From Spirochaetia bacterium (lineage in GTDB: Bacteria > Spirochaetota > Spirochaetia > Treponematales > Breznakiellaceae): a stretch of DNA of 17,072 bases. Location: NCBI GenBank assembly GCA_025997655.1, contig BNUW01000042.1, positions 1-17,072 of the forward strand, written 5' to 3'. This document shows, in pieces, positions 1,809 to 12,457 of this stretch. How positions within the stretch are numbered: the stretch's first letter is position 1; every line of letters starts with the position of its first letter. The notes under the pieces are model-generated. The model saw nothing but the letters and a program-made list of their open reading frames with translations. It had not been told where the DNA came from and did no database searches. The position numbers were made by a program, and so were the translations under genes.

Positions 1809-2138
1809 CTTTTATTCCAGGACGGCATATTGATGAAATACACCGGCAATGACGCCATGATAACTATACCCGATAGTGTTACCCACATTGGAAAGAAAGC
1901 GTTTGCCCGGTGTTGCAGACTACGAGCTATTACCGTAGATAATCAAAACGAATGTTTTGCAGATATCAATGGTGTTTTATTTGATAAAATCCAGCGCTTA
2001 TAAGTGCATTGATAAAAAGAACGGATAGGGTAGATTTTTCTGTTCCACCTTTTATAGAATGATTGCTGTATGTGAGAGCGCCGTTTGACATCAGCGTTGT
2101 TCATGGAAATGGCGACTGTATCATTGTTCCCGATTTTA
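1809..2138 (+). pseudogene. Decayed BspA-like leucine-rich-repeat (LRR_5) fragment
   Basis: Directly after the ATPase stop, the + strand encodes a recognisable LRR_5/BspA repeat. An in-frame stretch from 1809 gives FQDGILMKYTGND then ITIPDSVTHIGKKAF and DINGVLFDK, ending at a TAA at 2001-2003; the longest ATG frame is 1833-2003 (56 aa). One frame shift later, ALIKRTDRVDFSVPPFIE continues the same repeat logic up to a TGA near 2057, and weaker traces run on to about 2140. BspA-type proteins are usually secreted or surface proteins with many such repeats; this piece has no signal peptide, no proper start and at least one frameshift. I read it as the relic of a larger LRR gene, or of an LRR partner or domain once adjacent to the ATPase. 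Confidence 0.65.
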
Positions 2139-2531
2139 TTAATCTTTGCCATAAAATAAATATGAGTTATCTCTAACATTGTCTAAGGGAAATGAGCCGA
2201 CTTTCATATTTAATATTTTCATTAAATCGGATGGATCTGCATAGTAAATTTTTTCCAATGATTCTTCAAATTTTGACAGGCCATCAGGGTTCCTGTATTT
2301 TATTACATCATATTCCATCCCACTGCCGCTGCTTGAATTTACCCCTCTATCTACATGAATGAGCCGTACATAATTAAACCCCAAGGCCTTAGCAAACCTT
2401 CTATTCAGTATATGGTCAATCACCATCTTATCAATATTTATATTAGGGAAACAATTTTTATAGCGATTTCTATAACACGTATAATCAGTTCTGACCCAGC
2501 ATAAGATAGATATTGCTTCATTAACGGTCAT
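2139..2531 (-). CDS. Unrecognised 130-aa protein downstream of thyA
   Basis: I do not recognise this protein. It is 130 aa, has no predicted membrane segment or signal peptide, and is rich in Asn, Tyr and Arg. A central segment (RRFAKALGFNYVRLIHVD) and a C-terminal half with many aromatic and acidic residues suggest a compact soluble domain. A good ribosome binding site, AAGGAAG, lies about 8 bases before the ATG. It begins 21 bases after the thyA stop on the same strand, so the two are probably cotranscribed. Base composition is clearly more AT-rich than the ATPase gene to its left and matches thyA, suggesting the pair arrived together, for example from a phage or plasmid. The 3' end sits against the LRR remnant. 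Confidence 0.75.
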   Translation of the reverse strand: MTVNEAISILCWVRTDYTCYRNRYKNCFPNINIDKMVIDHILNRRFAKALGFNYVRLIHVDRGVNSSSGSGMEYDVIKYRNPDGLSKFEESLEKIYYADPSDLMKILNMKVGSFPLDNVRDNSYLFYGKD

Positions 2532-2552
2532 AATTATCTTCCTTTTTGAATG

Positions 2553-3422
2553 TCATACTGCTATATCAAATTTTATTGAAGGATATGGATTATAATTTTC
2601 GATTTTTGAATCACTATAAGTCCATTCAAAAAGTGATGTAAAATTATTTGTTATTATTTGAGGAAGTTTTCTAGGGACTCTGGCAATTTGCTTTTTAATA
2701 GCATCTATATGATTCACATAGATATGCGTGTCACCTAAGAAACCGATCAACCTACCTTCCTTCAAATTGGCTTCTTTTGCAAATAAATGTAGTAAAGTCG
2801 CATAACTCGCAATGTTAAAAGGGAGACCAAGTGCAACATCAACAGAACGTTGATTCCATAATAAATTAAGTTTGTTTTCTGTTACTGTCAACTGAAATGA
2901 GTAATGGCATGGAGGAAGAGCCATATGATCAATATCTAGCGGGTTCCATGCTGTTACGATCATCCTTCGATTATCTGGATTTTCTTTTAATTCTTTTATA
3001 ATCATTTCTAATTGGTCAATTCCAGTGCCAATAGGTTTATTGTCACAACCGGAATATTTTGCACCAAAATTTCGCCATTGCCATCCATAGATTGGCCCTA
3101 AATCGTTTTCATTTATCATTAATTCCTTTTTCTGAGGGTCGTTACTGTTATAAGGTACAATATCAGGATTACACCATTCATCCCAGATATGGTTATTGTG
3201 TTTTCTTAACCATTCCTTGTTAGTTAATCCTTTTATAAAAAATTCCAATTCGGATGAAACTAACCGAAAAGCAATCTTTTTTGTGGTAAGCAATGGGAAG
3301 CCATTAGCCATATCGTGTTCAAACATTAATCCTGAGAATGATAACGCATTAATACCAGTCCTGTTTTTTTTCAGTACGCCTTCTTTCAATATTTTATTTA
3401 CAATGTTAATATATACTTCCAT
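2553..3422 (-). CDS. thyA: Thymidylate synthase
   Basis: Converts dUMP and 5,10-methylenetetrahydrofolate to dTMP and dihydrofolate in the cytoplasm, the last step of de novo thymidylate synthesis. The 289-aa protein has the classic ThyA signature: the nucleophile in LPPCHYSFQ (Cys172), the phosphate-binding Arg pair in NRRMIVTAWNP (152-153), QRSVDVALGLPFNI (191-204), and DTHIYVNH (231-238). It is a little longer than the 264-aa E. coli enzyme and ends in a short hydrophobic tail (DIAV), as expected for the family. GAAGGTG precedes the ATG by about 8 bases. The gene is AT-rich compared with the flanking ATPase and with the thrC region, which suggests acquisition by transfer. It appears to be first in a two-gene unit with the 130-aa protein. 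Confidence 0.96.
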   Translation of the reverse strand: MEVYINIVNKILKEGVLKKNRTGINALSFSGLMFEHDMANGFPLLTTKKIAFRLVSSELEFFIKGLTNKEWLRKHNNHIWDEWCNPDIVPYNSNDPQKKELMINENDLGPIYGWQWRNFGAKYSGCDNKPIGTGIDQLEMIIKELKENPDNRRMIVTAWNPLDIDHMALPPCHYSFQLTVTENKLNLLWNQRSVDVALGLPFNIASYATLLHLFAKEANLKEGRLIGFLGDTHIYVNHIDAIKKQIARVPRKLPQIITNNFTSLFEWTYSDSKIENYNPYPSIKFDIAV

Positions 3423-3498
3423 AATATTACACCTTCATAATCGTTATTAATACCCGGCCAAGCGTCTACTTCTTGTTGCCAAGTTTTTCACCATAGTC

Positions 3499-3633
3499 TT
3501 ATCCAACCCGCCGTAACCAGCTTAGTCCAAATATCCACCTCTTGAACCACCGTTTAGGACTATTCCTAAACCCCGCCACATAACTCAAAGCAGACAAATC
3601 TACCTTTGGCTTATGTTCACAATATAGTGACAT
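3499..3633 (-). CDS. Possible 44-aa basic small protein or gene remnant
   Basis: An ATG-to-TAA frame of 44 residues. Its C-terminal half is strongly basic and aromatic (FRNSPKRWFKRWIFGLSWLR), which looks more like real coding sequence than random translation. There is no recognisable ribosome binding site before the ATG. The frame continues past TAA for about ten codons (DYGEKLGNKK), so this may be the broken end of a longer gene. I do not recognise the family. Confidence 0.25.
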   Translation of the reverse strand: MSLYCEHKPKVDLSALSYVAGFRNSPKRWFKRWIFGLSWLRRVG

Positions 3634-3849
3634 AGACGAATGTTTTAGTCAAGCAAAAGTATAAAAAACCCGTTCGGTCTACAGACCCACGCCCAAACAG
3701 TACTTTCAATACTGAATATTACCAGAATGCCGCTATCTTCGCAAGACTTATTGGCATAAATCCCTTGATTATGGTATTATGGTGATAAGTATGCCTTTTA
3801 TGGAACGAAATAAAGACCAGCGCCGCCACATTTGTTGTAAAATGAGCGT

Positions 3850-3987
3850 ATGGGAGAGGGGAAAGACGGGGTTGAAAACCTTTTGGCCCCCATGCGGGAA
3901 GGCCGGGAAGCAAAGGCGAAAGAATTAGGAGCATTGCAGAGGGCACGGAACATGAAAAACAACGAGGAGCTGCCGATACAGAAATGA
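3850..3987 (+). CDS. Possible 45-aa charged small protein
   Basis: ATG-to-TGA frame ending 19 bases before the flavodoxin-fold gene. The product is highly charged and helical, with segments such as MREGREAKAKELGALQRARN. No Shine-Dalgarno sequence is visible, and a stop lies three codons upstream in frame, so the start is not well supported. It could be the tail of a lost upstream gene in the same operon as the oxidoreductase, or chance. Confidence 0.25.
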   Translation: MGEGKDGVENLLAPMREGREAKAKELGALQRARNMKNNEELPIQK

Positions 3988-4006
3988 TGGGTAAAAGGAG
4001 GTTGCA

Positions 4007-4594
4007 ATGGACGGACAAAACTCAGATAAAAAAGAATTGCTGCTGATTACAGGATCTCCCCGAAAAAACGGTGTTACCGCAATGTTGGCAGAAATATTTC
4101 TGGAAGAAGCGAAACGTTTGGATAAAGACATAAACGTTACAATCTTGGATACCTATACCCTGGCTTTAAACCCCTGCACCCATTGTGGGTATTGCAAAAA
4201 AACCCCCGCCTGCGTACATAAAGACTTTTTACCCGTGGATGCCGCGTTACAAAAGGCGGATATTTTAGTTATAGCAAGCCCCGTGTATGTGTTGGGATTT
4301 CCCGCACCCTTAAAAGCGCTTCTTGACCGGAGTCAGCAGTATTTTGAGGCAAAGTTTTCGCTAGGAATCACTTCTATTAAAAAGCATAAGAAAGCTATTT
4401 TATTAAGCGCCTACGGCTCGAAGGATAATAGGGGTATTTTATTTATGGAAAAACAATTAAAAATGATTTTTAACGTTTTTAACGCGGAGCTAAACGCAAT
4501 CATAACGGCACGCAATACGGACAGCGGAAATGTAGATTTTGACGCGCTAAGGGAGGAAATTAAAACGGCCCTTGCTGGTATTCTTTTGATCTGA
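4007..4594 (+). CDS. Flavodoxin-fold NAD(P)H-dependent oxidoreductase, iron-sulfur flavoprotein type
   Basis: A 195-aa member of the NADPH-dependent FMN reductase superfamily (WrbA / iron-sulfur flavoprotein group), expected to bind FMN and reduce quinones or other electron acceptors in the cytoplasm. The FMN phosphate loop is GSPRKNG at 16-22, and the second FMN-binding segment is IASPVYVLGFPAPLKALLDR (89-108). Four cysteines at 57, 60, 63 and 69 form a compact C-x2-C-x2-C-x5-C motif (CTHCGYCKKTPAC), the pattern used for a 4Fe-4S cluster in iron-sulfur flavoproteins, although many homologues with this spacing carry no cluster. AAAGGAGG sits 6-7 bases before ATG, a near-ideal site. It stands alone on the + strand; its physiological substrate cannot be told from sequence. 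Confidence 0.9.
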   Translation: MDGQNSDKKELLLITGSPRKNGVTAMLAEIFLEEAKRLDKDINVTILDTYTLALNPCTHCGYCKKTPACVHKDFLPVDAALQKADILVIASPVYVLGFPAPLKALLDRSQQYFEAKFSLGITSIKKHKKAILLSAYGSKDNRGILFMEKQLKMIFNVFNAELNAIITARNTDSGNVDFDALREEIKTALAGILLI

Positions 4595-4767
4595 TCTCCT
4601 GAGATATTTCAAGGGTTCTGCTTCAGTACAGCAGTAACTTCTTCATTAACAGTCTGGTAACCACCACAAATATACTCAGACCTTAAAATAGAGCTTCCCC
4701 TTTATGTAAGTATTTCTCGATATTTTATATCGATAAAGTGTTTTCTATAAAATTCTTTGCTGTCTCA
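4595..4767. other. Intergenic region with palindrome and a coding-like scrap
   Basis: Contains a perfect palindrome at 4717-4733 (TCGATAT-TTT-ATATCGA), which could be an operator or part of a recombination site. On the minus strand an open stretch at 4609-4701 ends in TGA and reads GSSILRSEYICGGYQ then TVNEEVTAVLKQNP; it looks like the C-terminal end of a lost gene, but I do not recognise it. A second scrap, VINETAKNFIENTLSI, lies between this and the integrase stub. Together they suggest a deletion junction. Confidence 0.35.
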
Positions 4768-5013
4768 TTAATCACTCCAAAAGGCTTGCAGATACCCCAT
4801 CAACGAATCAGGCGTTTTTTCCTTCGGCGTGAAGTCAATCTCGGCCAGCATCGCCCGGGTGGCATCGTATGCCTCCAACTTCCGTTCCTTCTTGCCCTCG
4901 GCAAGAATGGACAAACTCCGGGCTACCTGGTAGCGTCCAGTCTCCTCATTGTAGAAACGCGCATACCACATCTGCGCGCCGCCCTTCGTTTTCTGCTTGT
5001 AAATCGTGAACAA
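4768..5013 (-). pseudogene. N-terminal stub of a tyrosine-recombinase (phage-type) integrase
   Basis: 81 residues resembling the arm-binding N-terminus of treponeme phage and ICE integrases: FTIYKQKTKGGAQMWYARFY followed by NEETGRYQVARSL and, at the end, PDSLMGYLQAFWSD before TAA. Full integrases of this type run to about 350-400 aa with a C-terminal R-H-R-Y catalytic domain; none of that is present in any frame up to 4595, so it cannot recombine DNA. The labelled start is a TTG; the frame is open further upstream to about 5079 (reading IRAPDIFARKHK), so the true start may be earlier. It lies about 80 bases outside the left copy of the tRNA-Val attachment repeat and points away from it, the position expected for the integrase of a second element inserted in tandem and later mostly deleted. 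Confidence 0.7.
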
Positions 5014-5096
5014 CTTGTGTTTCCGAGCGAAAATGTCAGGCGCTCTAATTAGTGTGTATACCGCCGGTTTTCCGGTAGGCTAAATCGTTATACCAT

Positions 5097-5155
5097 AAAG
5101 AATTACGATATGGGCGATACTAGATTTGAACTAGTGACTTCTACCGTGTGAAGGT
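5097..5155. repeat. Left attachment-site copy with partial tRNA-Val duplicate
   Basis: Identical over 59 bp to 8436-8494. Bases 5111-5155 equal the last 45 nt of the minus-strand tRNA-Val (anticodon arm, T arm, 3' acceptor strand). The 5' 27 nt of the tRNA are absent, so no functional tRNA is encoded here. Similarity to the right side continues weakly beyond the repeat (5058-5096 against 8400-8435, e.g. GCCGG..TCCGGTAG), that is, outside the element on the left but inside it on the right. Confidence 0.85.
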
Positions 5156-5399
5156 GGCCCGGTATGTTTCTTTGTATATATAGCGTTCATTCCGTTAACT
5201 ACACGGCACTAAAATATAGTAGACTTTGTTATATTAGTTTATTCCGTTTTTTGTGTCAATAGGGATTTCGGGTGGCACTCGGGCATACGTGAAAAAAGGA
5301 TTTTTCTATCTTGCTTCCGGGACTTGTTCCCCCGCCAGGGCGTGCCGGTTGTTTCAGTACTCTGGGCCGTTTCTTCTTTGCCGGGCTATTGAGTGACCG
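5156..5399. other. Left end of element: promoter and decayed tRNA-promoter copy, no gene
   Basis: No coding sequence. On the minus strand there is a near-consensus sigma-70 promoter (separate entry). Further right, 5299-5337 resembles the region upstream of the intact tRNA-Val (8542-8580): both share GATTTTTCTATCTT and, after a variable gap, TTCCCCCG. So a degenerate copy of the tRNA promoter lies about 143 bases from the partial tRNA copy, compared with 20 bases at the intact locus. Confidence 0.5.
5231..5259 (-). promoter_or_regulatory. Near-consensus sigma-70 promoter reading into the tRNA-Val half copy
   Basis: Minus strand TTGACA (5254-5259), 17-bp spacer, TAATAT (5231-5236). Transcription would start near 5224 and run through the 45-nt partial tRNA copy toward the integrase stub. 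It may once have driven that integrase, or a short RNA. Confidence 0.5.
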
Positions 5400-5612
5400 C
5401 TATTTGACGCTGCGGCCTGGCTGTCCGGGGCTTGCGGTGGCCATGGCGGGGGTGCGTGCTGCCCTGGCCTGGGGGGCGGGCGTGTCCGGGACTTCCTTGA
5501 AAGCATCCCGTTCAAATTCCGCCATGCGCTCCGGCGTGATCATGCCATGTGCTAAAAAGCCCTTAAAATCTTCGTGTAAGGCTTCATAAATACCGCTTCT
5601 GTATTCCTTCAT
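5400..5612 (-). CDS. HigA-like antitoxin N-terminal segment with Pro/Ala-rich tail, HTH missing
   Basis: 70 aa. The first ~40 residues, MKEYRSGIYEALHEDFKGFL then AHGMITPERMAEFERDAF, follow the pattern of the N-terminus of HTH antitoxins paired with RelE/HigB-type toxins (M-K-x-Y-x-S-x-I-x-x-A-x-H-E ... G-x-I-...-M-x-x-F). In that family a Cro/C1-type helix-turn-helix follows; here it is replaced by a tail of Pro, Ala and Arg, so DNA binding is unlikely. GGGAGA lies about 8 bases before ATG, and the start is 4 bases after the stop of the preceding 65-codon frame, giving the toxin-then-antitoxin order typical of these modules. The similarity is by eye; it may be degraded or a shortened regulator. 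Confidence 0.5.
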   Translation of the reverse strand: MKEYRSGIYEALHEDFKGFLAHGMITPERMAEFERDAFKEVPDTPAPQARAARTPAMATASPGQPGRSVK

Positions 5613-5616
5613 TGCA

Positions 5617-5814
5617 CTATCTCCCTATGCGGCCCTCTTGTATAAAGGCCCTTAATCCCTCATCGGTAAGCCCGTCCAGGTAAAGCCCGGCGGATTCCTT
5701 AAACTCCCGCTTTTCCTTTGGGCTTATAAAAAAATATTTTGGGGCAAGCCCTTGACGGCACGGCCTTTTAAGGCGATACTTTAAGTATAGCGAAGGGGTG
5801 GAAGCGGCTTCCAT
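5617..5814 (-). CDS. Small protein resembling the C-terminal part of a RelE/HigB-type toxin
   Basis: 65 aa. The second half (KYFFISPKEKREFKESAGLY then LDGLTDEGLRAFIQEGRI) resembles the last 40 residues of RelE-like toxins of the HigB/DUF1044 type, which read roughly YGFAKxxxxNIxxxExxAxxxLAxxxLxLxDExLxxAxxxGxI. The basic segment KYRLKRPCRQG could match the conserved K-R-x-x-R-P-G-x-G-K-S-G stretch, but about a dozen residues expected between the two are missing. The gene just downstream looks like the cognate antitoxin. No Shine-Dalgarno sequence is evident. It is in the same reading frame as the nuclease-domain frame upstream, separated only by the TAG at 5830-5832, so it could instead be that protein's former tail. 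Probably inactive. Confidence 0.4.
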   Translation of the reverse strand: MEAASTPSLYLKYRLKRPCRQGLAPKYFFISPKEKREFKESAGLYLDGLTDEGLRAFIQEGRIGR

Positions 5815-5829
5815 CGGGCGTAGGGTTTC

Positions 5830-6297
5830 CTATGCTTCTCCGCCGGGATGGCCTCCGGCTGCTATAACTTTCCTTGCCCCCGATAAATCAGATATTCCGT
5901 TCATGGTTATAATCCTCTCAAAATTGTCCATATCCAGGGGTTTTATTATTTTGTAAAAGGTTCGGCCCCGCAGCGCCTTGTTTCGGTTACTGTCTAAAAC
6001 TTCCTCAAAATAGAGCCAGGTTGCCCCGGCCTCCCTTTTTGCGTAGGCGTTTATCAGTTCCCCTTCCCGGATAGCGCCGATGATTGCCATGTCCGGCGCT
6101 TTCACTATGCCGGGTATCCTGTCAAAGTCCGTATCCAGTATGGCAAGTTCCCCCATGCCATGGCGTTTTTTGACGTGGTTCTTGAAATGGTCAGTCAGTT
6201 CATGGGTAAGCCCGGAAAAGTCCAGGCCGGTAGCGGCGGCAGCTTCTATAAGCTAGGGTTCCGGCTTGCCTATGATGGTTTTATCGAATTGAGCCAC
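5830..6297 (-). pseudogene. Phage-type barnase/EndoU/ColicinE5/RelE-like (PBECR) nuclease domain, interrupted by an amber codon
   Basis: The frame from a possible GTG at 6297 reads VAQFDKTIIGKPEP, then TAG at 6253-6255, then continues as coding sequence: LIEAAAATGLDFSGLTHELT, HFKNHVKKRHG, and from Met at 6156 the 108-aa stretch with IPGIVKAPDMAIIGA, ATWLYFEEVLDS and RTFYKIIKPL. The order (H-V-x-K-x-H-G, then ...RIP.I...PD, ...WLYFEEV, ...T.YK) is that of the small RNase-like domains found at the ends of phage MuF-type and related proteins. Downstream translation could restart at 6156 but would lose the conserved HVKKRHG motif. The usual residue at the stop would fit Trp (TGG to TAG), which is inference. 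An ATG at 6330 sits one base out of frame with this reading. A second in-frame TAG ends it at 5830. Confidence 0.55.
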
Positions 6298-6331
6298 GGT
6301 TATTTTATACCGTACCCCGGCTTTGCCATGA

Positions 6332-6751
6332 CTATTTGTCCCCGTCCTTTCCCTGGGGCTTCCGGGGCTTGGCGGCGGGTTTCGCTTTGGCGGCGGATGC
6401 GGCCCCGGACTTGGCGGCCTTTGGTTTGCCGCCGGCTTTGGCCTTGGCGTTCCTGCGTTCCACGGCGGCGCGGACGGCGTCCTCTGCCTTGGCAGCTTTC
6501 AGCTTGGCGGGGTAGGTTGCTTTCATTTCCGCATATAGCAGCTCCGTTTTTTCATGTTCCTGGTTTATGCACTGAGCCAAGAATTCGCTATCGGTCAGGT
6601 GTCCGGGAAGGTGGGGGGCTTTGCCATCAAGAAAGGCCATGGTTTCCTTGATCTCCGCCTTCTCCTCTGCGGTCCACTTGTCAGGGGTAAGCCAGGTAAG
6701 GGCGGTATGAAGTACGATAGACGCCTTTTCATTGTTTAAGACAGTAGGCAT
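6332..6751 (-). CDS. Unrecognised 139-aa protein with lysine/alanine-rich tail
   Basis: I do not recognise the family. The first ~95 residues look helical and acidic-to-neutral (TPDKWTAEEKAEIKETMAFL, DSEFLAQCINQEHEKTELLY). From about residue 96 the sequence becomes low-complexity and basic, with Lys, Ala, Pro and Gly in an H1- or HU-tail-like style (KAKAGGKPKAAKSGAAS). Such tails usually bind nucleic acid, which would suit a small phage- or element-encoded protein, but this is inference. Start: the AAAGGAG upstream is 15 bases from this ATG, too far to be ideal, and is better placed for a 10-codon frame starting at 6761; translational coupling is possible. It follows the readthrough end of the preceding gene without a gap. 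Confidence 0.65.
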   Translation of the reverse strand: MPTVLNNEKASIVLHTALTWLTPDKWTAEEKAEIKETMAFLDGKAPHLPGHLTDSEFLAQCINQEHEKTELLYAEMKATYPAKLKAAKAEDAVRAAVERRNAKAKAGGKPKAAKSGAASAAKAKPAAKPRKPQGKDGDK

Positions 6752-6761
6752 TTATATACAT
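6729..6761 (-). CDS. Possible 10-codon leader peptide overlapping the 139-aa gene start
   Basis: ATG at 6761 with AAAGGAG 5 bases upstream gives MYINAYCLKQ then TGA, overlapping the first codons of the 139-aa gene in another frame. It uses the only well-spaced Shine-Dalgarno sequence here, so ribosomes probably load on it. Whether it matters is unknown. Confidence 0.2.
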   Translation of the reverse strand: MYINAYCLKQ

Positions 6762-6868
6762 AGTTTCTCCTTTGTGTGTGTAATGGCGCCCCGGTCGGGG
6801 CGGTGTATCTCCCGGATGGTTTCCGGGGATACTTCAGGTATTTCTGTATGGTTTTCACGCTGGGCCTT

Positions 6869-7123
6869 TTATGCTTCCACCGGTGCCCTGAGATGGATTT
6901 TGCCTTCACCGGAAAGATTAACAAACTCGGGGGTTATCCCATGCCGGACAAGTGATTCCCGCGCCTTGTTATTGAGACAGTCGCATTTTTCCTGGATCGT
7001 CATTCCCGCCGTTTCATCCTGGAGCATGAGCCGGGCCGCATGGATTTCCCTTATCGGTCCATCCTCCATGAAGGGATCATTGAGAATCCGGGGATCGTTC
7101 ATGTATTCCTCTATCGTTTTCAT
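6869..7123 (-). CDS. Unrecognised 84-aa protein, third gene of the BrnT operon; probably truncated by a nonsense codon
   Basis: Begins at an ATG that overlaps the TGA of the preceding 77-aa gene (ATGA), so its translation is coupled. It is 84 aa, soluble and charged: MKTIEEYMNDPRILNDPFME, then IREIHAARLMLQDETAGMTI and SLVRHGITPEF. I do not know the family. The frame does not lose coding character at its TAA (6869-6871): it goes on for 38 codons reading KAQRENHTEIPEVSPETIRE and IHRPDRGAITHTKEKL before a second TAA at 6752-6754, exactly next to the start of the 139-aa gene and with that gene's Shine-Dalgarno sequence inside it. This suggests an ancestral protein of about 123 aa and a later stop mutation such as CAA to TAA. 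Function may relate to the toxin module upstream. Confidence 0.7.
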   Translation of the reverse strand: MKTIEEYMNDPRILNDPFMEDGPIREIHAARLMLQDETAGMTIQEKCDCLNNKARESLVRHGITPEFVNLSGEGKIHLRAPVEA

Positions 7124-7353
7124 TTGACGGTTGCTAACTCCAGGGGAACCGCATCTGGGTCCACTACTCCCGCCGCCTTCATTCTCCGGGCGCGTTCTTC
7201 CCAGCTTATACCGCCTACGGGGTGCCAGTTTATGAATTCTTCCGGGGTTAATTTCTCGCACCCCGGATCAACGGCAGCGTGTCTTTTCTGCACCGCTTTT
7301 ATGCGTTCCACCTGTTCAGGGGATAAACCAGTTTCCTTTACTGCTTTCGCCAT
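7120..7353 (-). CDS. Candidate antitoxin in the BrnA position, non-canonical
   Basis: 77 aa, starting 38 bases inside the end of the BrnT-type gene, where brnA normally lies. Residues 8-40 (GLSPEQVERIKAVQKR then DPGCEKLTPEEFINWHPV) are reminiscent of the N-terminal part of some BrnA proteins, which read ...ERIKAL...D.D.P.LTPEQL..F.PV. The C-terminal ribbon-helix-helix of BrnA (RLD.DVL.WF...G.GYQTRIN) is absent; instead there is GGISWEERARRMKAAG and a short tail. If it is the antitoxin, it would neutralise without the usual DNA-binding fold, so autoregulation must differ. GGAGGAG lies about 13 bases before the ATG, inside the toxin gene. Alternatively it is an unrelated element gene. Its stop overlaps the next start. 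Confidence 0.65.
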   Translation of the reverse strand: MAKAVKETGLSPEQVERIKAVQKRHAAVDPGCEKLTPEEFINWHPVGGISWEERARRMKAAGVVDPDAVPLELATVK

Positions 7354-7609
7354 AATAAATACGCCGCTCCTCCGGCTCCGCCTCCCTAGCGGTTATAATG
7401 CGGCATGTTTCGCCGCGTTCCGTATATACCACAAATAGCACATCCCCAGATCTTCCCAGGACTTGCCACCTGTCCTCTAACCCGCTATGGGTTTCATCAT
7501 ACTGCTCTGCATGGAATGGATCATCAAATACCTCTTTGACCATCCCAAGGTCAATTCCATGCTTCTCAATATTAATCCGTTCCTTTTCGGAATACCATTC
7601 AAATTTCAT
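7316..7609 (-). CDS. brnT: BrnT family toxin (RelE-like ribonuclease)
   Basis: 97 aa, the usual length of BrnT toxins, which are RelE-fold ribonucleases that cleave mRNA and stop growth until neutralised by BrnA. Family signatures in order: FEW at 3-5, the KHGID segment at 16-20, a variable stretch, RWQVLGRS at 47-54, the beta-hairpin LFVVYTER at 58-65, and RIITAREAEPEERRIYY at 70-86, the C-terminal Arg/Tyr motif. The protein looks complete and undamaged, unlike many of its neighbours. It is the first gene of a minus-strand unit with the 77-aa candidate antitoxin and the 84-aa gene. A MITE end lies 43 bases upstream of its start, so the original promoter has been displaced or replaced. No strong Shine-Dalgarno sequence is seen. 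Confidence 0.85.
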   Translation of the reverse strand: MKFEWYSEKERINIEKHGIDLGMVKEVFDDPFHAEQYDETHSGLEDRWQVLGRSGDVLFVVYTERGETCRIITAREAEPEERRIYYGESSKGNWFIP

Positions 7610-7652
7610 AATAACCTAAACCCGCCTTTTTGTAAAATGACCGCCCCGGTAT

Positions 7653-7870
7653 GGCAGGATAAACGCATAGACTTTGAAATCAATGTCTGATGATACAAAT
7701 TCTTAAAAAACCACAAAGGAACCCAGGGGTTCCGGGACACGAAGGACACAAAGGGAAGAAAAGTTAGAGAATAACGCTCGAAACCATCTTTTTTCCCTCT
7801 TCCTTCGTGTTCTTTGTGTCCTTCGTGGTTAAATTTTCTTCTTTTTTAATTTCTATGCGTTTATCCTGCC
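7653..7870. mobile_element. 218-bp MITE with 19-bp terminal inverted repeats and 5-bp target duplication
   Basis: Perfect terminal inverted repeats GGCAGGATAAACGCATAGA at 7653-7671 and its complement at 7852-7870. The pentanucleotide GGTAT flanks both ends directly (7648-7652 and 7871-7875), the expected target-site duplication. The interior has no gene. It carries an internal inverted pair built from the motif CACGAAGGACACAAAG (left near 7739-7754, right complementary near 7802-7829), so the whole unit can fold into a long hairpin. The element is non-autonomous and needs a transposase in trans. It sits between the regulator genes and brnT. Confidence 0.85.
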
Positions 7871-7875
7871 GGTAT

Positions 7876-7957
7876 GGGGTGTATCAGCTTATTCTGCTGA
7901 CACTATAAATAGGGTTCGTTTTTAGAAAAAGCTTATCCAAAAGGTGAAAGGGAATGT
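7876..7957. other. Short gap between MITE and the 52-aa gene
   Basis: 82 bases, AT-rich in its left half, without a gene. A small inverted repeat TCAGCTTATTCTGCTGA near 7884-7900 could be a weak hairpin after the 52-aa gene. No promoter is obvious. Confidence 0.3.
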
Positions 7958-8116
7958 CTATGTCCGGGGCTGGTCAGTGACCTCCCTAAAATAGCCCTCA
8001 GGAGCGTTATAGCGGGCCGTGGTGAGGCGCGGAGAGGGTTTGTCATATTTCCCCTCCCCGGTATCCCGCATTTTAAGTGCCGGACCTACATATTGGGTGC
8101 CCTCTGGGGCAGTCAT
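7958..8116 (-). CDS. 52-aa small protein translationally coupled to the HTH regulator
   Basis: ATG at 8116 overlaps the TGA of the HTH gene (ATGA), and the frame runs to TAG at 7958-7960. The product begins MTAPEGTQYVGPALKM and contains PSPRLTTARYNAPEGYF; it is polar and Pro/Gly/Tyr-rich with no membrane segment. I do not recognise it. The exact stop/start overlap with a well-supported regulator is the main reason to call it real. It is close to the length of small phage accessory proteins, and its function cannot be inferred. Confidence 0.55.
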   Translation of the reverse strand: MTAPEGTQYVGPALKMRDTGEGKYDKPSPRLTTARYNAPEGYFREVTDQPRT

Positions 8117-8301
8117 AGCTTGGCCTCCGGCATGTCCCCGATTTTCGTACCATCGGGGAAGGAAAAAAACGAGTTGTAAACTGCCCCCAGGGAAGCGGCG
8201 ATTTTTTCCAGTTCTTCCCGCGTGAAGGTGTCCCGTTTTATTTTCTGGTTAAAGTTGGAGGGGGTCATCCCTATGGCCCTTGCTATGGCCGCTTGGCTCA
8301 T
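8113..8301 (-). CDS. Small HTH (Cro/C1-like) DNA-binding regulator
   Basis: 62 aa. Residues 1-38 form a helix-turn-helix: MSQAAIARAIGMTPSNFNQ, where the turn and recognition helix (IGMTPSNFNQKIKRDTF) are clear, then EELEKIAASLGA, the fourth helix of Xre-type domains. The remainder, NSFFSFPDGTKIG, resembles the C-terminal strand of small phage-type repressors that may dimerise. It is probably a repressor of the element's own operon. Its ATG overlaps the TGA of a 15-aa upstream frame with a good Shine-Dalgarno sequence, and its TGA overlaps the start of the 52-aa gene. If a single base were restored at the upstream junction, the 15-aa frame and this protein would join into one ~77-aa HTH protein, so the leader may be its former N-terminus. 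Confidence 0.75.
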   Translation of the reverse strand: MSQAAIARAIGMTPSNFNQKIKRDTFTREELEKIAASLGAVYNSFFSFPDGTKIGDMPEAKL

Positions 8302-8345
8302 TCCCTTGAATAGTCGGCATGGCCGATGGACACCGAAAAACGCAT
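8298..8345 (-). CDS. 15-aa upstream frame coupled to the HTH regulator
   Basis: ATG at 8345 with GAAGGAG 5 bases upstream encodes MRFSVSIGHADYSRE, ending at a TGA that overlaps the HTH start codon. It carries the only good ribosome binding site for the operon. It is either a leader peptide that couples translation, or the original N-terminus split by a one-base change. Confidence 0.45.
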   Translation of the reverse strand: MRFSVSIGHADYSRE

Positions 8346-8435
8346 AAAAACTCCTTCGCGGGTGTCATTCGTTATGCACTCGCTTCAAAAAGTGTTTTTA
8401 GCGCCGGTGGTCCGGTAGCTAATTCTATATAAAAC

Positions 8436-8494
8436 AAAGAATTACGATATGGGCGATACTAGATTTGAACTAGTGACTTCTACCGTGTGAAGGT
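8436..8494. repeat. Right attachment-site copy within tRNA-Val
   Basis: The 59-bp repeat matching 5097-5155; 45 bp of it lie in the 3' part of the intact tRNA and 14 bp just beyond. The element lies on its low-coordinate side, downstream of the tRNA 3' end, as is typical for integration at a tRNA gene. Confidence 0.85.
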
Positions 8495-8521
8495 AGCACT
8501 CTCCCACTGAGTTAATCGCCC
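8450..8521 (-). tRNA. tRNA-Val (anticodon CAC)
   Basis: 72 nt. The acceptor stem GGGCGAT/ATCGCCC with discriminator A, D arm CTC-AGTGGGA-GAG, anticodon stem-loop CTACC-TTCACAC-GGTAG giving anticodon CAC, and T arm ACTAG-TTCAAAT-CTAGT all pair correctly. CCA is not encoded. It reads GUG valine codons. Its 3' half serves as the attachment site for the element to its left, and it has its own promoter upstream. Confidence 0.95.
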
Positions 8522-8550
8522 AAACCACGGCTTTCGTCCGTGATTTTTCT

Positions 8551-8579
8551 ATCTTACCACCTTGATTCCCCCGTGTCAA
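8551..8579 (-). promoter_or_regulatory. Sigma-70 promoter of tRNA-Val
   Basis: Minus strand TTGACA (8574-8579), 17-bp spacer, TAAGAT (8551-8556), about 30 bases before the tRNA 5' end. The -35 box begins 6 bases after the stop of the large TPR gene on the same strand. Confidence 0.75.
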
Positions 8580-8584
8580 CGCAT

Positions 8585-11500
8585 TTACCGCGGCAGATAC
8601 GGTTCAAGCACCTCGGTGAGCCGGAAATCCCCGGGGACCAGTTCCTCCCAGGCGGAGGGTTCCAGCACGTCCTTGTCAATCTGAATGTAGAGATGGGGTT
8701 CGTAACCCGGTTCGGGGTAAAGGGTGTTCCGGGAGTTCAGGAAGGCCAGGTTCATGCCGGGGGAGGAAAAGTCACCGGCGCCGGCGCGGATCATGGAGGT
8801 GGGGTTACGGGTCAGGGAGTCCCAGGCGCGGGCGGATTCGGTGTAGAGGCCCAGGGCGCGGGAACGGTAGCTGCGGTTGCCTGTAGCTTTGGTCAGGGCT
8901 TCAAGGGCGACCGCCAGATTGTTCCGGGCTACCATCATCCGTTCTACCAGTTCCAGGTGTTCCGGCCGGTCATTGGGCATGAGCACGGGGAACCGGGCGC
9001 GTTCGGAGTCCAGGATGTCCAGGAGGCGGTTGTAGTAGCCCTGGGCCGCAAAGTAATTGCCCCGCAGGTAAGAGACGTTTCCCAGGGCGTTGAGGAGCCG
9101 GCGATTTGGGGGTATTGCCGAGGAAACCGCGAAGAACCGGTCAAGAGCGGGCGCCCATTGTCCCTGCTGGTAATAGGCCGAGCCGATGCGGTACTGCATC
9201 TCCGGCGGGGACCAGCCGTTCTGTTCGGCCTTTAGGTAGTACTCTACGGCCTGGGGCATGTTCCCTGATCTGGTGAAGTACTCCAGGTCCCCCAGGTCTG
9301 CGTAGAGCTTGCCGAATTGGGGATCGGGGGTGAGGAAGCGGCGGTCCAGGGCATCCTCGTATATACCGATACCCTTGATAAGCTGTTCTTCGGCGGCGAA
9401 AAATTCCCGGCTGTTGATGAGTATCTCTCCCATGCGGCACTGGGCGCTCAGGCGGTAACCGGTACGCCGGGCGGATTCCTCCGGGGCGGCGTCAAAGGCA
9501 CGCACGGCTATTTCCAGGGTCTGCCGTTCTTCCACGCTGCTGCCAAAATGATTGTAGTACCGGGCCAGGTGATAATGGGCTTCCGGCAGACGGGGTGAGG
9601 CCTGTACCGCCCGGAGCAGGATGTCCCGGATACCCCCAATCTGACCGATATGCTCGTCGGGAACGCCCCGGACTTCCTCAAACCGCTTATCCAGCAGGTA
9701 GCCCCCCAGGTCGGCAAGGGTGATTGCGGAAATTTTCCGGCGCTTGGGATCGGACATAAAGTACTGCTGCAGCGGGAGGACCTCACCCAGATTATCCACC
9801 CGGATGAAATACCGCAGCATCCGTTCAACAATGGGGTCCTGCCACCCATAGACCTCCAAAAGCCGGGCGTAGGCGCTGCGGGCATCTTCATAATGGACGG
9901 TCTTTTCAGCTTCTGCCCGGAGCCGGATTTCTTCCTGCCGGCGGGCAGCGGCGGCCTTGGCTTCGGCTTCGGACTGCTCACCCCAGAGCAGGTTGTTATC
10001 ACCCAGGGCCAGGAGGCCTTCTCTATCATCAGCAGAGAGTTCAAGGATATTCCGGCGGATGATACGATTCGCCTTGTCGTAGTTCCGCAGATAGTAGGTT
10101 TCCATATTGGCATAGTCCAGGGCGCCCTTCTTATCACCGGGATAATGGGTCAGGAGCTGATCGTACTTTTCCTCTGCATAGATGTACTGCCGCTCATCCC
10201 GGAAAGCTTCGGCGTACTTGTAGAACCAATTCTTTTGCCGGTGACGCTGGAAAGCCCGGTTAAAACGCTCGTTTGCCTGGGCATACGCTCCGGTGGGGAT
10301 AAGCTCATACCCCTGTTTGTATATCGAATTTGCACGCAGGGGGGTATAAATGAAGGTATATCCCAGGTAGAACACCGAAGCCGCCAGGATGGCAATAACC
10401 AGGAACAGCCGCAGTACCGGCAGAAACTTATGAGTAAAAACATAGGGAAAACTGGCCTGCTCCTGCTCTAAATCTTCACCGGTTTTCTTTTCAAAACCCC
10501 GGGGAACAGGGATGGATCGATTCAGAATTTTCCCCGCCAGGGAAGCCGCTTCCCTGGGGGACCCGCCCCGGACCAGCAGCTTAATCAGGGAGGACATGAG
10601 ATTCGGCGCGATGACCTGCTCGGCGATTATCTCTTCAACGGCGATCCGTAAATTCAGGGGATAGCCGGCGATGGTTTCCCGAAGCCGGTCAAAGTCACCC
10701 TCGCTTAGGCTGATTTCTTCCACCGCCTCGTCGGACACATCTGAGGCCGTAACTTCAGGCATAAACGCCTCGGCGGCAAAATCAACGGCAGGGGCGGCGC
10801 CCGTTTCCCCGCCGGGGGCATTGCCCCCCAATACCTCATCAAGGCCGGGCAGGGCAAAATCCATATCGGGAATACCCTCATCGGCAGTCCCCGTCCCATC
10901 ACCACCGCTAAGACCGGCGTCCCCTCCATCGGGGCTGAAACCCTCGAAGGGATCACCTTCAACGGCGCCTTCGGTAAGAGCTCCTTCCGGGAAAGCACCT
11001 TCTCCAGGTACGCCTTCAGGCGAAATATCCACCCCTAAATCCGGGACCGGGAATTCCCCTTCGTCACCGCCGCCTTCTTCCAGGTTTATATCCGCTATAT
11101 CGGGGAAAGCGTCCCCAAAATCCTCTTCGGTGACCGGTTCAGGGGATGCCGCCTCGATTTCATCGGCAAAACCGCCTAATAGAGCGTCCATGGCGCCGGA
11201 ATTATCATCAGTATCAAGAGGGGAACCTTCGGTTGAGGGTTCAAGAGGGGAACCTTCGGTTGAGGGTTCAGGGGCTTTACCGTCAGTTGCACCGGGAGCA
11301 ACCTCCGGGGAATCGGCGTTTAGATCGGGGAAGTCCAAATTGATGCCGGCATTATCCACGGGAATAGTCTCTGGTTCATCTGATGAGAATCCAAAGTCGG
11401 GGAGATCTTCCCCCAGATCGGGGAAGTCCAAATCAGCGCCGGCATTATCCGCGGGGGCTTTACCGTCAGTTGCACCGGGAGCAGCCTCCGGGGAATCGGC

Positions 11501-12457
11501 GTTTAGATCGGGGATGTCCAAATCGATGCCGGCACTATCCACGGGAACAGTCTCTGGTTCACCTGATGAGAATCCAAAATCGGGGAGATCTTCCCCCAAA
11601 TCGGGGAAGTCCAAATCAGCGCCGACATTATCCGCAGGGGCTTTACCGTCAGTTGCACCGGGAGCAGCCTCCGGGGAATCGGCGTTTAGATCGGGGAAGT
11701 CCAAATTGATGCCGGCATTATCCACGGGAATAGTCTCTGGTTCATCTGATGAGAATCCAAAGTCGGGGAGATTTTCCCCCAGATCGGAGAAGTCCAAATC
11801 AGCGCCGGCACTATCTGCGGGGGCTTCACCGCCAGTTGCACCGGGAGCAGCCTCCGGGGAATCGGCGTTTAGATCGGGGAAGTCCAAATCGATGCCGGCA
11901 TTATCCACGGGAATAGTCTCTGGTTCATCTGATGAGAATCCAAAGTCGGGGAGATCTTCCCCCAAATCGGAGAAGTCCAAATCGGCGTCGGCATTATCCG
12001 CAGGGGCTTCACTATCGGCCCCACCGGGAACGGCTGTTTCGGCGACGCTGTCACCAAGGCCGGAAAAATCATCATCAAAACTGACATCGGGAATATCCAA
12101 TGGGGGGGCTGCGGCCTCAGCGGAAATGGCATCCGCAGAAAGGGCCTCTTCAAGGGCGGTTTCGGCGGCCGGAGGTGGGGTTAAATTATCGGGGCCGCTG
12201 CCCAGCAGATCGGCAAAATCAAAGTCCAACCCCGATTCCACCGCGGATTCTTCCGGGGATGTGCCGACATCCAGATCAATGCCGGGATCAAGGTCCTCCG
12301 GGAATGCCGGCTCTTGGGGGGGGGGCGGCGCAACCGGTTCGGAATTCGGAAGGGGCAGATCGTCCGGGGGCTGTTCCAATTGAGCCAGAACCATGGCTTC
12401 GTCGGCGATGGCGCCAAAAGAGGCTTTAAAGTTTTTCAGTTGCTCCAACGACGGCAT
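8585..12457 (-). CDS. Large acidic single-pass TPR protein, probable periplasmic flagellar collar protein (FlcA-like)
   Basis: 1290 aa. N-terminal ~560 residues: acidic, Pro/Gly/Ala/Asp-rich low complexity containing four 61-residue tandem repeats (about 149-397). Then a folded helical stretch (SLSEGDFDRLRETIAGYPLN; LIKLLVRGGSPREAASLAGK), one transmembrane helix at about 680-705 (LRLFLVIAILAASVFYLGY), and ~590 residues of TPR-like helical pairs such as YKQGYELIPTGAYAQANERF. With no cleavable signal peptide, the low-complexity part should be cytoplasmic and the TPR part periplasmic. Spirochaetal FlcA (B. burgdorferi BB0326) has the same plan of N-terminal region, one membrane helix and C-terminal TPRs, and scaffolds the collar of periplasmic flagella; the match is from memory of architecture, so the symbol is left empty. 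The start has only a weak Shine-Dalgarno sequence (TTGAG). Another membrane-anchored TPR scaffold is the alternative. Confidence 0.9.
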   Translation of the reverse strand: MPSLEQLKNFKASFGAIADEAMVLAQLEQPPDDLPLPNSEPVAPPPPQEPAFPEDLDPGIDLDVGTSPEESAVESGLDFDFADLLGSGPDNLTPPPAAETALEEALSADAISAEAAAPPLDIPDVSFDDDFSGLGDSVAETAVPGGADSEAPADNADADLDFSDLGEDLPDFGFSSDEPETIPVDNAGIDLDFPDLNADSPEAAPGATGGEAPADSAGADLDFSDLGENLPDFGFSSDEPETIPVDNAGINLDFPDLNADSPEAAPGATDGKAPADNVGADLDFPDLGEDLPDFGFSSGEPETVPVDSAGIDLDIPDLNADSPEAAPGATDGKAPADNAGADLDFPDLGEDLPDFGFSSDEPETIPVDNAGINLDFPDLNADSPEVAPGATDGKAPEPSTEGSPLEPSTEGSPLDTDDNSGAMDALLGGFADEIEAASPEPVTEEDFGDAFPDIADINLEEGGGDEGEFPVPDLGVDISPEGVPGEGAFPEGALTEGAVEGDPFEGFSPDGGDAGLSGGDGTGTADEGIPDMDFALPGLDEVLGGNAPGGETGAAPAVDFAAEAFMPEVTASDVSDEAVEEISLSEGDFDRLRETIAGYPLNLRIAVEEIIAEQVIAPNLMSSLIKLLVRGGSPREAASLAGKILNRSIPVPRGFEKKTGEDLEQEQASFPYVFTHKFLPVLRLFLVIAILAASVFYLGYTFIYTPLRANSIYKQGYELIPTGAYAQANERFNRAFQRHRQKNWFYKYAEAFRDERQYIYAEEKYDQLLTHYPGDKKGALDYANMETYYLRNYDKANRIIRRNILELSADDREGLLALGDNNLLWGEQSEAEAKAAAARRQEEIRLRAEAEKTVHYEDARSAYARLLEVYGWQDPIVERMLRYFIRVDNLGEVLPLQQYFMSDPKRRKISAITLADLGGYLLDKRFEEVRGVPDEHIGQIGGIRDILLRAVQASPRLPEAHYHLARYYNHFGSSVEERQTLEIAVRAFDAAPEESARRTGYRLSAQCRMGEILINSREFFAAEEQLIKGIGIYEDALDRRFLTPDPQFGKLYADLGDLEYFTRSGNMPQAVEYYLKAEQNGWSPPEMQYRIGSAYYQQGQWAPALDRFFAVSSAIPPNRRLLNALGNVSYLRGNYFAAQGYYNRLLDILDSERARFPVLMPNDRPEHLELVERMMVARNNLAVALEALTKATGNRSYRSRALGLYTESARAWDSLTRNPTSMIRAGAGDFSSPGMNLAFLNSRNTLYPEPGYEPHLYIQIDKDVLEPSAWEELVPGDFRLTEVLEPYLPR
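11214..11267. repeat. 27-bp tandem duplication in the FlcA-like gene
   Basis: Two identical 27-bp units at 11214-11240 and 11241-11267 encode the repeated peptide EPSTEGSPL. It preserves frame and lies right next to the 183-bp array, in the Pro/Ser/Gly-rich cytoplasmic part of the protein. Confidence 0.85.
11271..12002. repeat. Four 183-bp in-frame tandem repeats in the FlcA-like gene
   Basis: Units at 11271-11453, 11454-11636, 11637-11819 and 11820-12002, with a partial diverged unit beyond 12003. Landmark sequences (GGGAATAGTCTCTGGTTCA and its variant) recur at exact 183-base spacing (11360, 11543, 11726, 11909). Each unit encodes 61 residues with two D-L-D-F motifs, for example AGADLDFSDLGEDLPDFGF and PVDNAGIDLDFPDLNADSPE. 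The near identity implies recent expansion, so copy number probably varies between strains. Confidence 0.9.

What the first reader, a model, noticed from the sequence alone, without database searches (positions are those of the whole stretch)
5097..8494. tRNA-Val-integrated accessory element carrying toxin-antitoxin and nuclease genes but no integrase
A perfect 59-bp direct repeat, one copy in the intact tRNA-Val and one in a partial tRNA copy, brackets 3.3 kb of small co-oriented genes (HTH, BrnT module, PBECR-like nuclease, HigBA-like). Without integrase, replication or packaging genes it resembles a satellite or the stripped remnant of a larger element. Its cargo layout is not one I can match to a described element.
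Basis: partly seen in the sequence, partly recalled or inferred. Interest (0 to 1): 0.7.

Follow-up and report, generated by a model that had tools for sequence, protein, structure and literature searches.

The report
Integrase-stripped island beside a tRNA gene
A 3.3-kb piece of DNA beside a tRNA gene in a termite-gut-type spirochaete is the worn-down remnant of a mobile element that lost its integrase gene, stacked on the remnant of an older one, and it still carries one toxin gene and a likely antitoxin.

Summary
An exact 59-bp repeat (5097-5155, 8436-8494) joins tRNA-Val(CAC) to a displaced tRNA 3' fragment, with small leftward genes between. The missing integrase is explained: relatives at the same tRNA (G002, G058) keep a full-length tyrosine integrase, and the window matches G002 at 99% from the tRNA through the first 38 nt of that gene (8308-8345), then jumps into a truncated HTH gene. 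Integrase loss is a secondary deletion. The distal repeat is also the left end of a second, probably older element, with an 81-codon integrase N-terminal relic (4768-5013) just outside. G003, a complete genome, holds a single copy of the core at an empty site. G058 holds three copies: an integrase-truncated 2.8-kb toxin cassette bounded by att cores, plus the tRNA followed by a full integrase on another contig. Best reading: a decayed tandem array that works like a cis-mobilizable element. It is probably immobile now: the right arm motif is lost and no closely related integrase is in the 70%-complete assembly. Much cargo looks broken, but BrnT and a conserved 77-aa partner look intact. New member of a known kind.

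The parts
8449..8522 (-). tRNA-Val(CAC), the intact integration target
   Evidence: ARAGORN
8551..8579 (-). promoter-like site of the tRNA, TTGACA-17-TAAGAT
   Evidence: consensus match only; 8 sites found in 4650-8700, shuffles gave 4.3, sd 2.2
8436..8494 (.). proximal copy of the 59-bp repeat; 8449-8494 is tRNA, 8436-8448 is element DNA
8402..8418 (-). inverted-repeat block between tRNA and integrase (CTACCGG-ACCA-CCGGCG), left end of element A
   Evidence: similar blocks in leaders of relatives; no consensus RNA fold
8359..8381 (-). putative arm-type integrase site GAGTGC-N4-CGAATGACACCCG, left arm of element A
   Evidence: 0 mismatches here and in 4 other left ends; role inferred
8308..8345 (-). 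relic A: first 38 nt of the A-type integrase gene, then a deletion junction at 8307/8308
   Evidence: 0 mismatches to G058:C23, 1 to G002:C2
8113..8301 (-). HTH gene apparently lacking its 5' part (joined to the integrase start)
   Evidence: PF13443 4.2e-4, below cut-off; a homologue in L015 has more N-terminal residues
7652..7868 (.). 217-bp insertion with 27-nt, 89% complementary, inverted ends (MITE-like)
   Evidence: 100% copy at G000:C64:13267-13483 and a 91% match over most of it in G057:C1; inverted repeats
7608..7636 (-). promoter-like site upstream of brnT
   Evidence: TTTACA-17-TATTAT, (consensus match only)
7316..7609 (-). BrnT toxin (ribonuclease type), full-length domain
   Evidence: PF04365 2.8e-22, profile 1-77/77
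7120..7353 (-). 77-aa conserved partner overlapping brnT, probable antitoxin, no Pfam/NCBIfam/PADLOC name
   Evidence: 283 hits including itself; brnT adjacent in 6 of 7 loci that were found with this protein and have upstream sequence; no named family
6869..7126 (-). conserved 85-aa protein of these islands ('EYMND' is my label), function unknown
   Evidence: 117 hits including itself; relatives in L016 (G002:C50), L085 (G001:C98), L086 (G058:C72), L092 (G003)
6332..6751 (-). 139-aa ORF with Lys/Ala-rich tail
   Evidence: one homologue besides itself
5830..6297 (-). PBECR3-type nuclease gene interrupted by an in-frame TAG at 6253-6255
   Evidence: uninterrupted relatives in G001, G002 (Pfam) and G133
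5617..5814 (-). possible HigB/RelE-like fragment
   Evidence: by eye against L015 and G002 right ends only; no family match
5400..5612 (-). HigA-like ORF (name by recall and position), without HTH
   Evidence: homologues in L015, where it follows a RelE toxin gene (PF06296), and in G058:C72; no family match
5231..5259 (-). outward-facing promoter-like site at the right end, TTGACA-17-TAATAT
   Evidence: consensus match only; right end aligned with relatives
5097..5155 (.). distal copy of the repeat: displaced tRNA 3' fragment plus the start of element B
5062..5078 (-). same kind of inverted-repeat block, left end of element B
   Evidence: also in G001:C98
4768..5013 (-). relic B: N-terminal 81 codons of a B-type tyrosine integrase; no catalytic-domain remnant found in the window

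Best explanation
This is a decayed tandem array of two elements that integrated, by tyrosine-recombinase site-specific recombination, into the anticodon arm/3' half of the same tRNA-Val gene. Element B came first; it survives as the distal att copy, its left-end block and an integrase N-terminal relic. Element A came later, between the tRNA and B, pushing B away from the tRNA. A then lost its integrase by a deletion running from integrase codon 13 into the HTH gene, lost part of its right-hand arm site, took a MITE-like insertion, and had its nuclease gene interrupted. It keeps the two att cores and a likely intact BrnT/77-aa toxin-antitoxin pair, which could hold the segment in place. Shown by sequence: att duplication, the two integrase relics, an empty site and relatives with a full integrase. 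Inferred: order of events, arm-site role, present immobility, antitoxin function and addiction.
For: Exact repeat and tRNA. Empty site in complete genome G003: TPR-like gene, tRNA-Val, then a conserved 216-aa gene, and one copy of the core in the whole genome, against 2 in G000, 2 in G002 and 3 in G058. Window 8308-8494 is 99% identical to G002:C2 and 97% to G058:C23, both with full-length 394-402-aa integrases (PF00589, 3.3e-19 and 7.9e-19) directly after tRNA-Val and with homologues of the window's flank genes. Relic B: matches in 8 of 57 genomes, host included; all 8 relative loci lie directly 3' of a tRNA, as do 22 of 30 fetched loci of the A-type search. G058:C72 holds an integrase cut after 48 codons between att cores 2769 bp apart, with two right ends identical over 242 bp. 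In G057 the same left end breaks off before the integrase start.
Against: No far-end att copy of element B was found in the window, so B's extent and its relation to the thyA/FMN-reductase segment are unknown. The contig comes from a MAG (69.7% complete, 402 contigs), and a 59-bp repeat can mislead assemblers; independent contigs (G001:C98, G058:C72) show matching att/left-end junctions, but no reads were checked. A's complete relative is not seen end to end: G002:C2 and G058:C23 end within 1.4 kb after the integrase, and the link between G058:C23 and C72 is inferred. The A-like integrase closest after G058 (L103, 58%) has no tRNA in its 1.2 kb upstream. Relic B is matched by 6 of 10 integrases tested at E<=1e-9, weakly by one and not by three; it belongs to the B type, not the A type.
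Confidence: 0.85

Rival explanations
1. An integrase-less cassette that is still mobile: a sibling integrase encoded elsewhere excises it using the intact cores and left arm, as a trans- or cis-mobilised passenger.
For: Cores and left arm motif intact. The integrase is cut at different points in G000 (12-13 codons), G058:C72 (48 codons) and G057 (before the start codon) while the left arm motif is kept. In G058 a full integrase of the same type is present in the same genome.
Against: The right arm motif is lost in the window (no match at up to 4 mismatches). Of six PF00589 hits in the host assembly, three align to the A-type integrase at 24-27% identity and three do not (E<=1e-3). HTH gene truncated and nuclease gene interrupted, as expected of a fossil.
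Confidence: 0.1
2. Phage satellite that never had an integrase.
For: Small size; relatives of the integrase family sit on elements with terminase, primase or tail genes.
Against: 38 nt of an A-type integrase gene remain at the expected place; no replication or packaging gene named in the interval.
Confidence: 0.03
3. Simple duplication of a tRNA segment or an assembly artefact.
For: MAG contig; repeat within reach of assembly errors.
Against: Element-type left-end block after both copies, and matching junctions on independent contigs in other genomes.
Confidence: 0.02

Closest known systems
CIME (cis-mobilizable element) in tandem accretion, ICESt1-type
   Same: att sites kept at both ends, integration genes lost, in tandem with another element at one target gene (PMC5704250, passages read)
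   Different: defined as derived from an ICE or IME; here relatives of the integrase family carry phage-type genes and no conjugation gene was seen among the proteins tested; mobilisation not shown
Dehalococcoides ssrA genomic islands
   Same: tandem islands bounded by repeats of an RNA gene 3' end; of 31 islands 15 lack an integration module (PMC3146451, passages read)
   Different: Ccr-like recombinase and tmRNA target; reductive dehalogenase cargo instead of toxin-antitoxin genes
Islander-type tRNA genomic islands
   Same: intact tRNA plus displaced 3' fragment; anticodon-centred sites in 2083 of 3919 islands (PMC4383910, passages read)
   Different: the pipeline tests for an integrase gene and calls tandems only when each member has its own, so this interval would be expected to be missed
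ICEclc outward promoter
   Same: promoter at the far end facing outwards, placed before the integrase gene in the circle (PMC2704930, one passage read)
   Different: here only a consensus promoter match in the right-end sequence; no expression data, and the integrase is gone

Membership tests
CIME | attL and attR retained | tested here: met
   59-bp exact repeat, cores intact; whether they still work is untested, and the arm motif is lost at the right end
CIME | integration genes lost | tested here: met
   only relics at 8308-8345 and 4768-5013
CIME | derived from an ICE or IME that had transfer genes | tested here: inconclusive
   no transfer gene named among nine ORFs of the interval; relatives of the integrase family carry terminase, primase or tail genes; A's complete parent not seen end to end
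CIME | moves with an adjacent element | not testable with these tools
   needs excision or transfer assays
tRNA genomic island (Islander definition) | intact tRNA gene plus displaced tRNA fragment in the same orientation | tested here: met
tRNA genomic island (Islander definition) | integrase gene in the interval | tested here: not met
   38-nt relic only
Phage satellite (PICI/P4-like) | own integrase, replication and packaging-interference genes (definition recalled) | tested here: not met
   none named among the nine ORFs tested
BrnTA toxin-antitoxin | BrnT toxin domain | tested here: met
   PF04365 2.8e-22
BrnTA toxin-antitoxin | BrnA antitoxin domain PF14384 in the partner | tested here: not met
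   no PF14384 hit for 7120-7353 at E<=1, while two G058 proteins do hit

The most novel reading that the evidence does not exclude
In this spirochaete family the tRNA-Val site holds arrays in which integrase-deleted, att-bounded toxin cassettes are a recurrent and selected form: a sibling with a full integrase moves or maintains them, and an outward promoter at each right end re-arms the next integrase. The BrnT here is neutralised by a 77-aa partner that is not BrnA.
Probability: 0.12. Interest if true: 0.6.

Novelty: new member of a known kind. Interest (0 to 1): 0.35.

Why it matters
It lays out how a tRNA-integrated element becomes an integrase-free island: an empty site, left ends with a full integrase, three differently cut integrases in close relatives, and an integrase-cut cassette between att cores in a genome that also has a full integrase. 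Island finders that require an integrase gene would be expected to miss such segments. It also points to a BrnT partner protein without a library name that is common in spirochaete records and easy to test.

Tried and rejected
RNAalifold of 22 aligned tRNA-to-integrase leaders gave no consensus structure (energy 0.0), so the inverted-repeat block is described as DNA only; 12 of 34 leaders in hand were dropped before that run (duplicates and long ones) and the rest cut to 95 nt. AlphaFold of the 77-aa partner was low confidence (mean pLDDT 59.7, pTM 0.41), so no fold search was made. The exact right-end pattern was found in 3 of 195 genomes; G058, with a mismatch, is missed by it. The viral-contig scan for the 77-aa partner found no relative. 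The AAA gene at 39-1808 hits IetA-type models through its ATPase domain, far below the NCBIfam cut-off, so it is not called a defence gene. Joining G002:C2 with G002:C5 as one prophage was considered and dropped: C5 has its own different integrase after a tRNA-Arg gene. The gene after tRNA-Val in G003 looked like a dolichol kinase to me, but no Pfam model matches at 0.01. The DNA search scored only two candidates per genome, so the single copy in G003 rests.
Full report
Observation. The 59-bp repeat is exact (5097-5155 = 8436-8494), with tRNA-Val(CAC) at 8449-8522 on the minus strand. The 50-bp core is found twice in the 2.74-Mb host assembly, at these two places only. Ten minus-strand ORFs were scanned against Pfam and PHROGs (nine of the interval plus 4768-5013): BrnT is clear, PBECR3 and HTH are below Pfam's cut-offs, and the HigBA-like ORFs match no family. 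Plus-strand ORFs of the interval were not scanned.

What the distal repeat is. Just outside it lies an 81-codon ORF (4768-5013). A search of 57 genomes found matches in 8 including the host. The eight relative loci all lie directly 3' of a tRNA gene: Leu, Gly or Val. Five of them have integrase ORFs of about 400-430 aa; L009 runs into the contig end, L008 stops after 284 aa, and L011 is a broken copy. In one search tblastn placed six of ten integrases (L004-L009) on the window fragment at E<=1e-9, L103 weakly (0.01-0.05), and L010, L101 and L102 not at all (L010 had matched at 1.8e-7). The fragment stops after the FW motif, and no significant catalytic-domain match was found in the window. Between tRNA and integrase the relatives share a block of the form TTAGCCTACCCGAAAACGGGCGG, with variants; the window has its own version after both repeat copies. 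The distal repeat is therefore also the left end of a second element, B. In G001:C98 the same att copy and block (96% over 105 bp) is followed by the AAA gene that lies at 39-1808 in the window (95-96% identical), with no integrase seen between.

What happened to the integrase of element A. Window 8308-8494 matches G002:C2 at 99% and G058:C23 at 97%, at tRNA-Val genes next to homologues of the window's TPR-like and CBM genes. Both carry a full-length integrase (394 and 402 aa; PF00589). The window keeps the first 38 nt of that gene, with 1 mismatch to G002 and 0 to G058, then joins an HTH gene that seems to lack its own start. In G057 the same left end breaks off before the integrase start and runs into a PBECR-type gene. 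In G058:C72 the integrase is cut after 48 codons.

A matching array in G058. C72 holds, in tRNA orientation, the right end of one element, an att copy, then a 2.77-kb cassette (integrase fragment, HTH, one BrnT/BrnA pair, a second BrnA with a BrnT match over residues 45-87 only, two EYMND-type proteins, a HigA-like ORF, right end), another att copy, and a conserved gene. The two right ends are identical over 242 bp. The tRNA with the full integrase is on another contig, C23, so the join is inferred. In G003 a homologue of that last gene follows tRNA-Val directly, and the core occurs once in the complete genome: an empty site. Core copies at up to 3 mismatches: G000 2, G001 1, G002 2, G003 1, G004 1, G057 1, G058 3. 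The gene was not found in the host or G001 assemblies (10 of 12 genomes have it), so the far end of the host's own array could not be located.

Arms and promoter. A bipartite motif, GAGTGC-N4-CGAATGACACCCG, has 0 mismatches at 5 left ends and 3 right ends among 7 sequences scanned; at up to 4 mismatches it is absent from G001:C144 and from the window's right end, which is shorter there. The motif was read from these same sequences, so its role as an integrase arm site is inference. A TTGACA-17-TAATAT match faces outward at the right end (8 promoter-like sites found against 4.3 expected), as reported for ICEclc (PMC2704930, one passage).

Kind of parent. The A-type search found integrases at E<=1e-40 in 30 of 195 genomes, and none in the host. 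Of the 30 loci fetched (of 35 places listed), 22 have a tRNA directly upstream; of the other eight, L128 has one base of upstream sequence. Of six PF00589 hits in the host, three align to the A-type integrase at 24-27% identity and three do not. Ten proteins of five related elements were scanned: terminase (L016, L015), primase or helicase (L019, L083), tail tape-measure and head genes (L015) were named; the three from the A-like element L137 gave an excisionase, an endonuclease and an unknown. The parent looks phage-like; a conjugative parent is not excluded.

Cargo. BrnT is full length. Its 77-aa neighbour has 283 hits including itself and 25 invariant positions in 26 aligned (26 chosen from the 120 listed). 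Of ten loci found with this protein, seven have upstream sequence and six of those have brnT next to it; L147 is the exception. Adding the loci, which were found with DNA that included brnT and so are biased, gives 10 of 11 distinct loci. In several of these one gene is only partly matched or split (L032, L034, L039, L041, L144). It has no Pfam, NCBIfam or PADLOC match at the thresholds used, apart from a chance-level Pfam hit (YBR126W-A, E 0.22), so an antitoxin role is inferred from position. The 85-aa EYMND protein has 117 hits including itself. The PBECR3 gene is interrupted by TAG at 6253-6255; uninterrupted relatives exist.

Literature. One search (Treponema, termite, prophage, integrase, tRNA together) held one paper, on hydrothermal-vent prophages. 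One search listed 12 of 2,167 papers, and none of the 12 mentions T. primitia. So no described array of this kind was found, on a thin search. The CIME and accretion model is in print (PMC5704250, passages), as are tandem islands lacking integration modules (PMC3146451, passages). Searches gave listings; from them the passages were read. One search read passages of a paper listed.

Noticed in passing
7652-7868: 217-bp MITE-like repeat with 27-nt inverted ends; an identical copy lies at the very end of contig G000:C64, so it may be breaking the assembly.
   Followed up: partly
7120-7353: Conserved 77-aa partner of BrnT without a library name; the genome-contig scan found 10 loci, all in records titled Treponema, Spirochaetaceae or Spirochaetia.
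   Followed up: partly
6869-7126: 85-aa EYMND protein recurs in several islands, next to BrnT genes (L086) or a gene with a weak PIN_3 match (L085; PF13470 8e-4).
   Followed up: partly
1808-4768: Segment with thyA (33% GC), an FMN reductase-like gene and a weak LRR_5 fragment lies between relic B and the AAA gene; in G001:C98 the AAA gene follows the att copy within about 350 bp, so the segment may be B's cargo or a separate insertion.
   Followed up: no
39-1808: AAA ATPase with weak IetA-type similarity in its ATPase domain; several relatives in G001, G002 and G003.
   Followed up: partly
11269-12117: Four tandem copies at 183-bp spacing inside the TPR-like gene.
   Followed up: no
G002:C5 36560-48060: Element with a different integrase after a tRNA-Arg gene, but ending in the tRNA-Val right end and att fragment: a composite or rearranged island.
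   Followed up: partly
L021 (G015:C51) 3840-4087: Another broken integrase, matching residues 1-46 and 168-234 only, next to tRNA-Gly.
   Followed up: no
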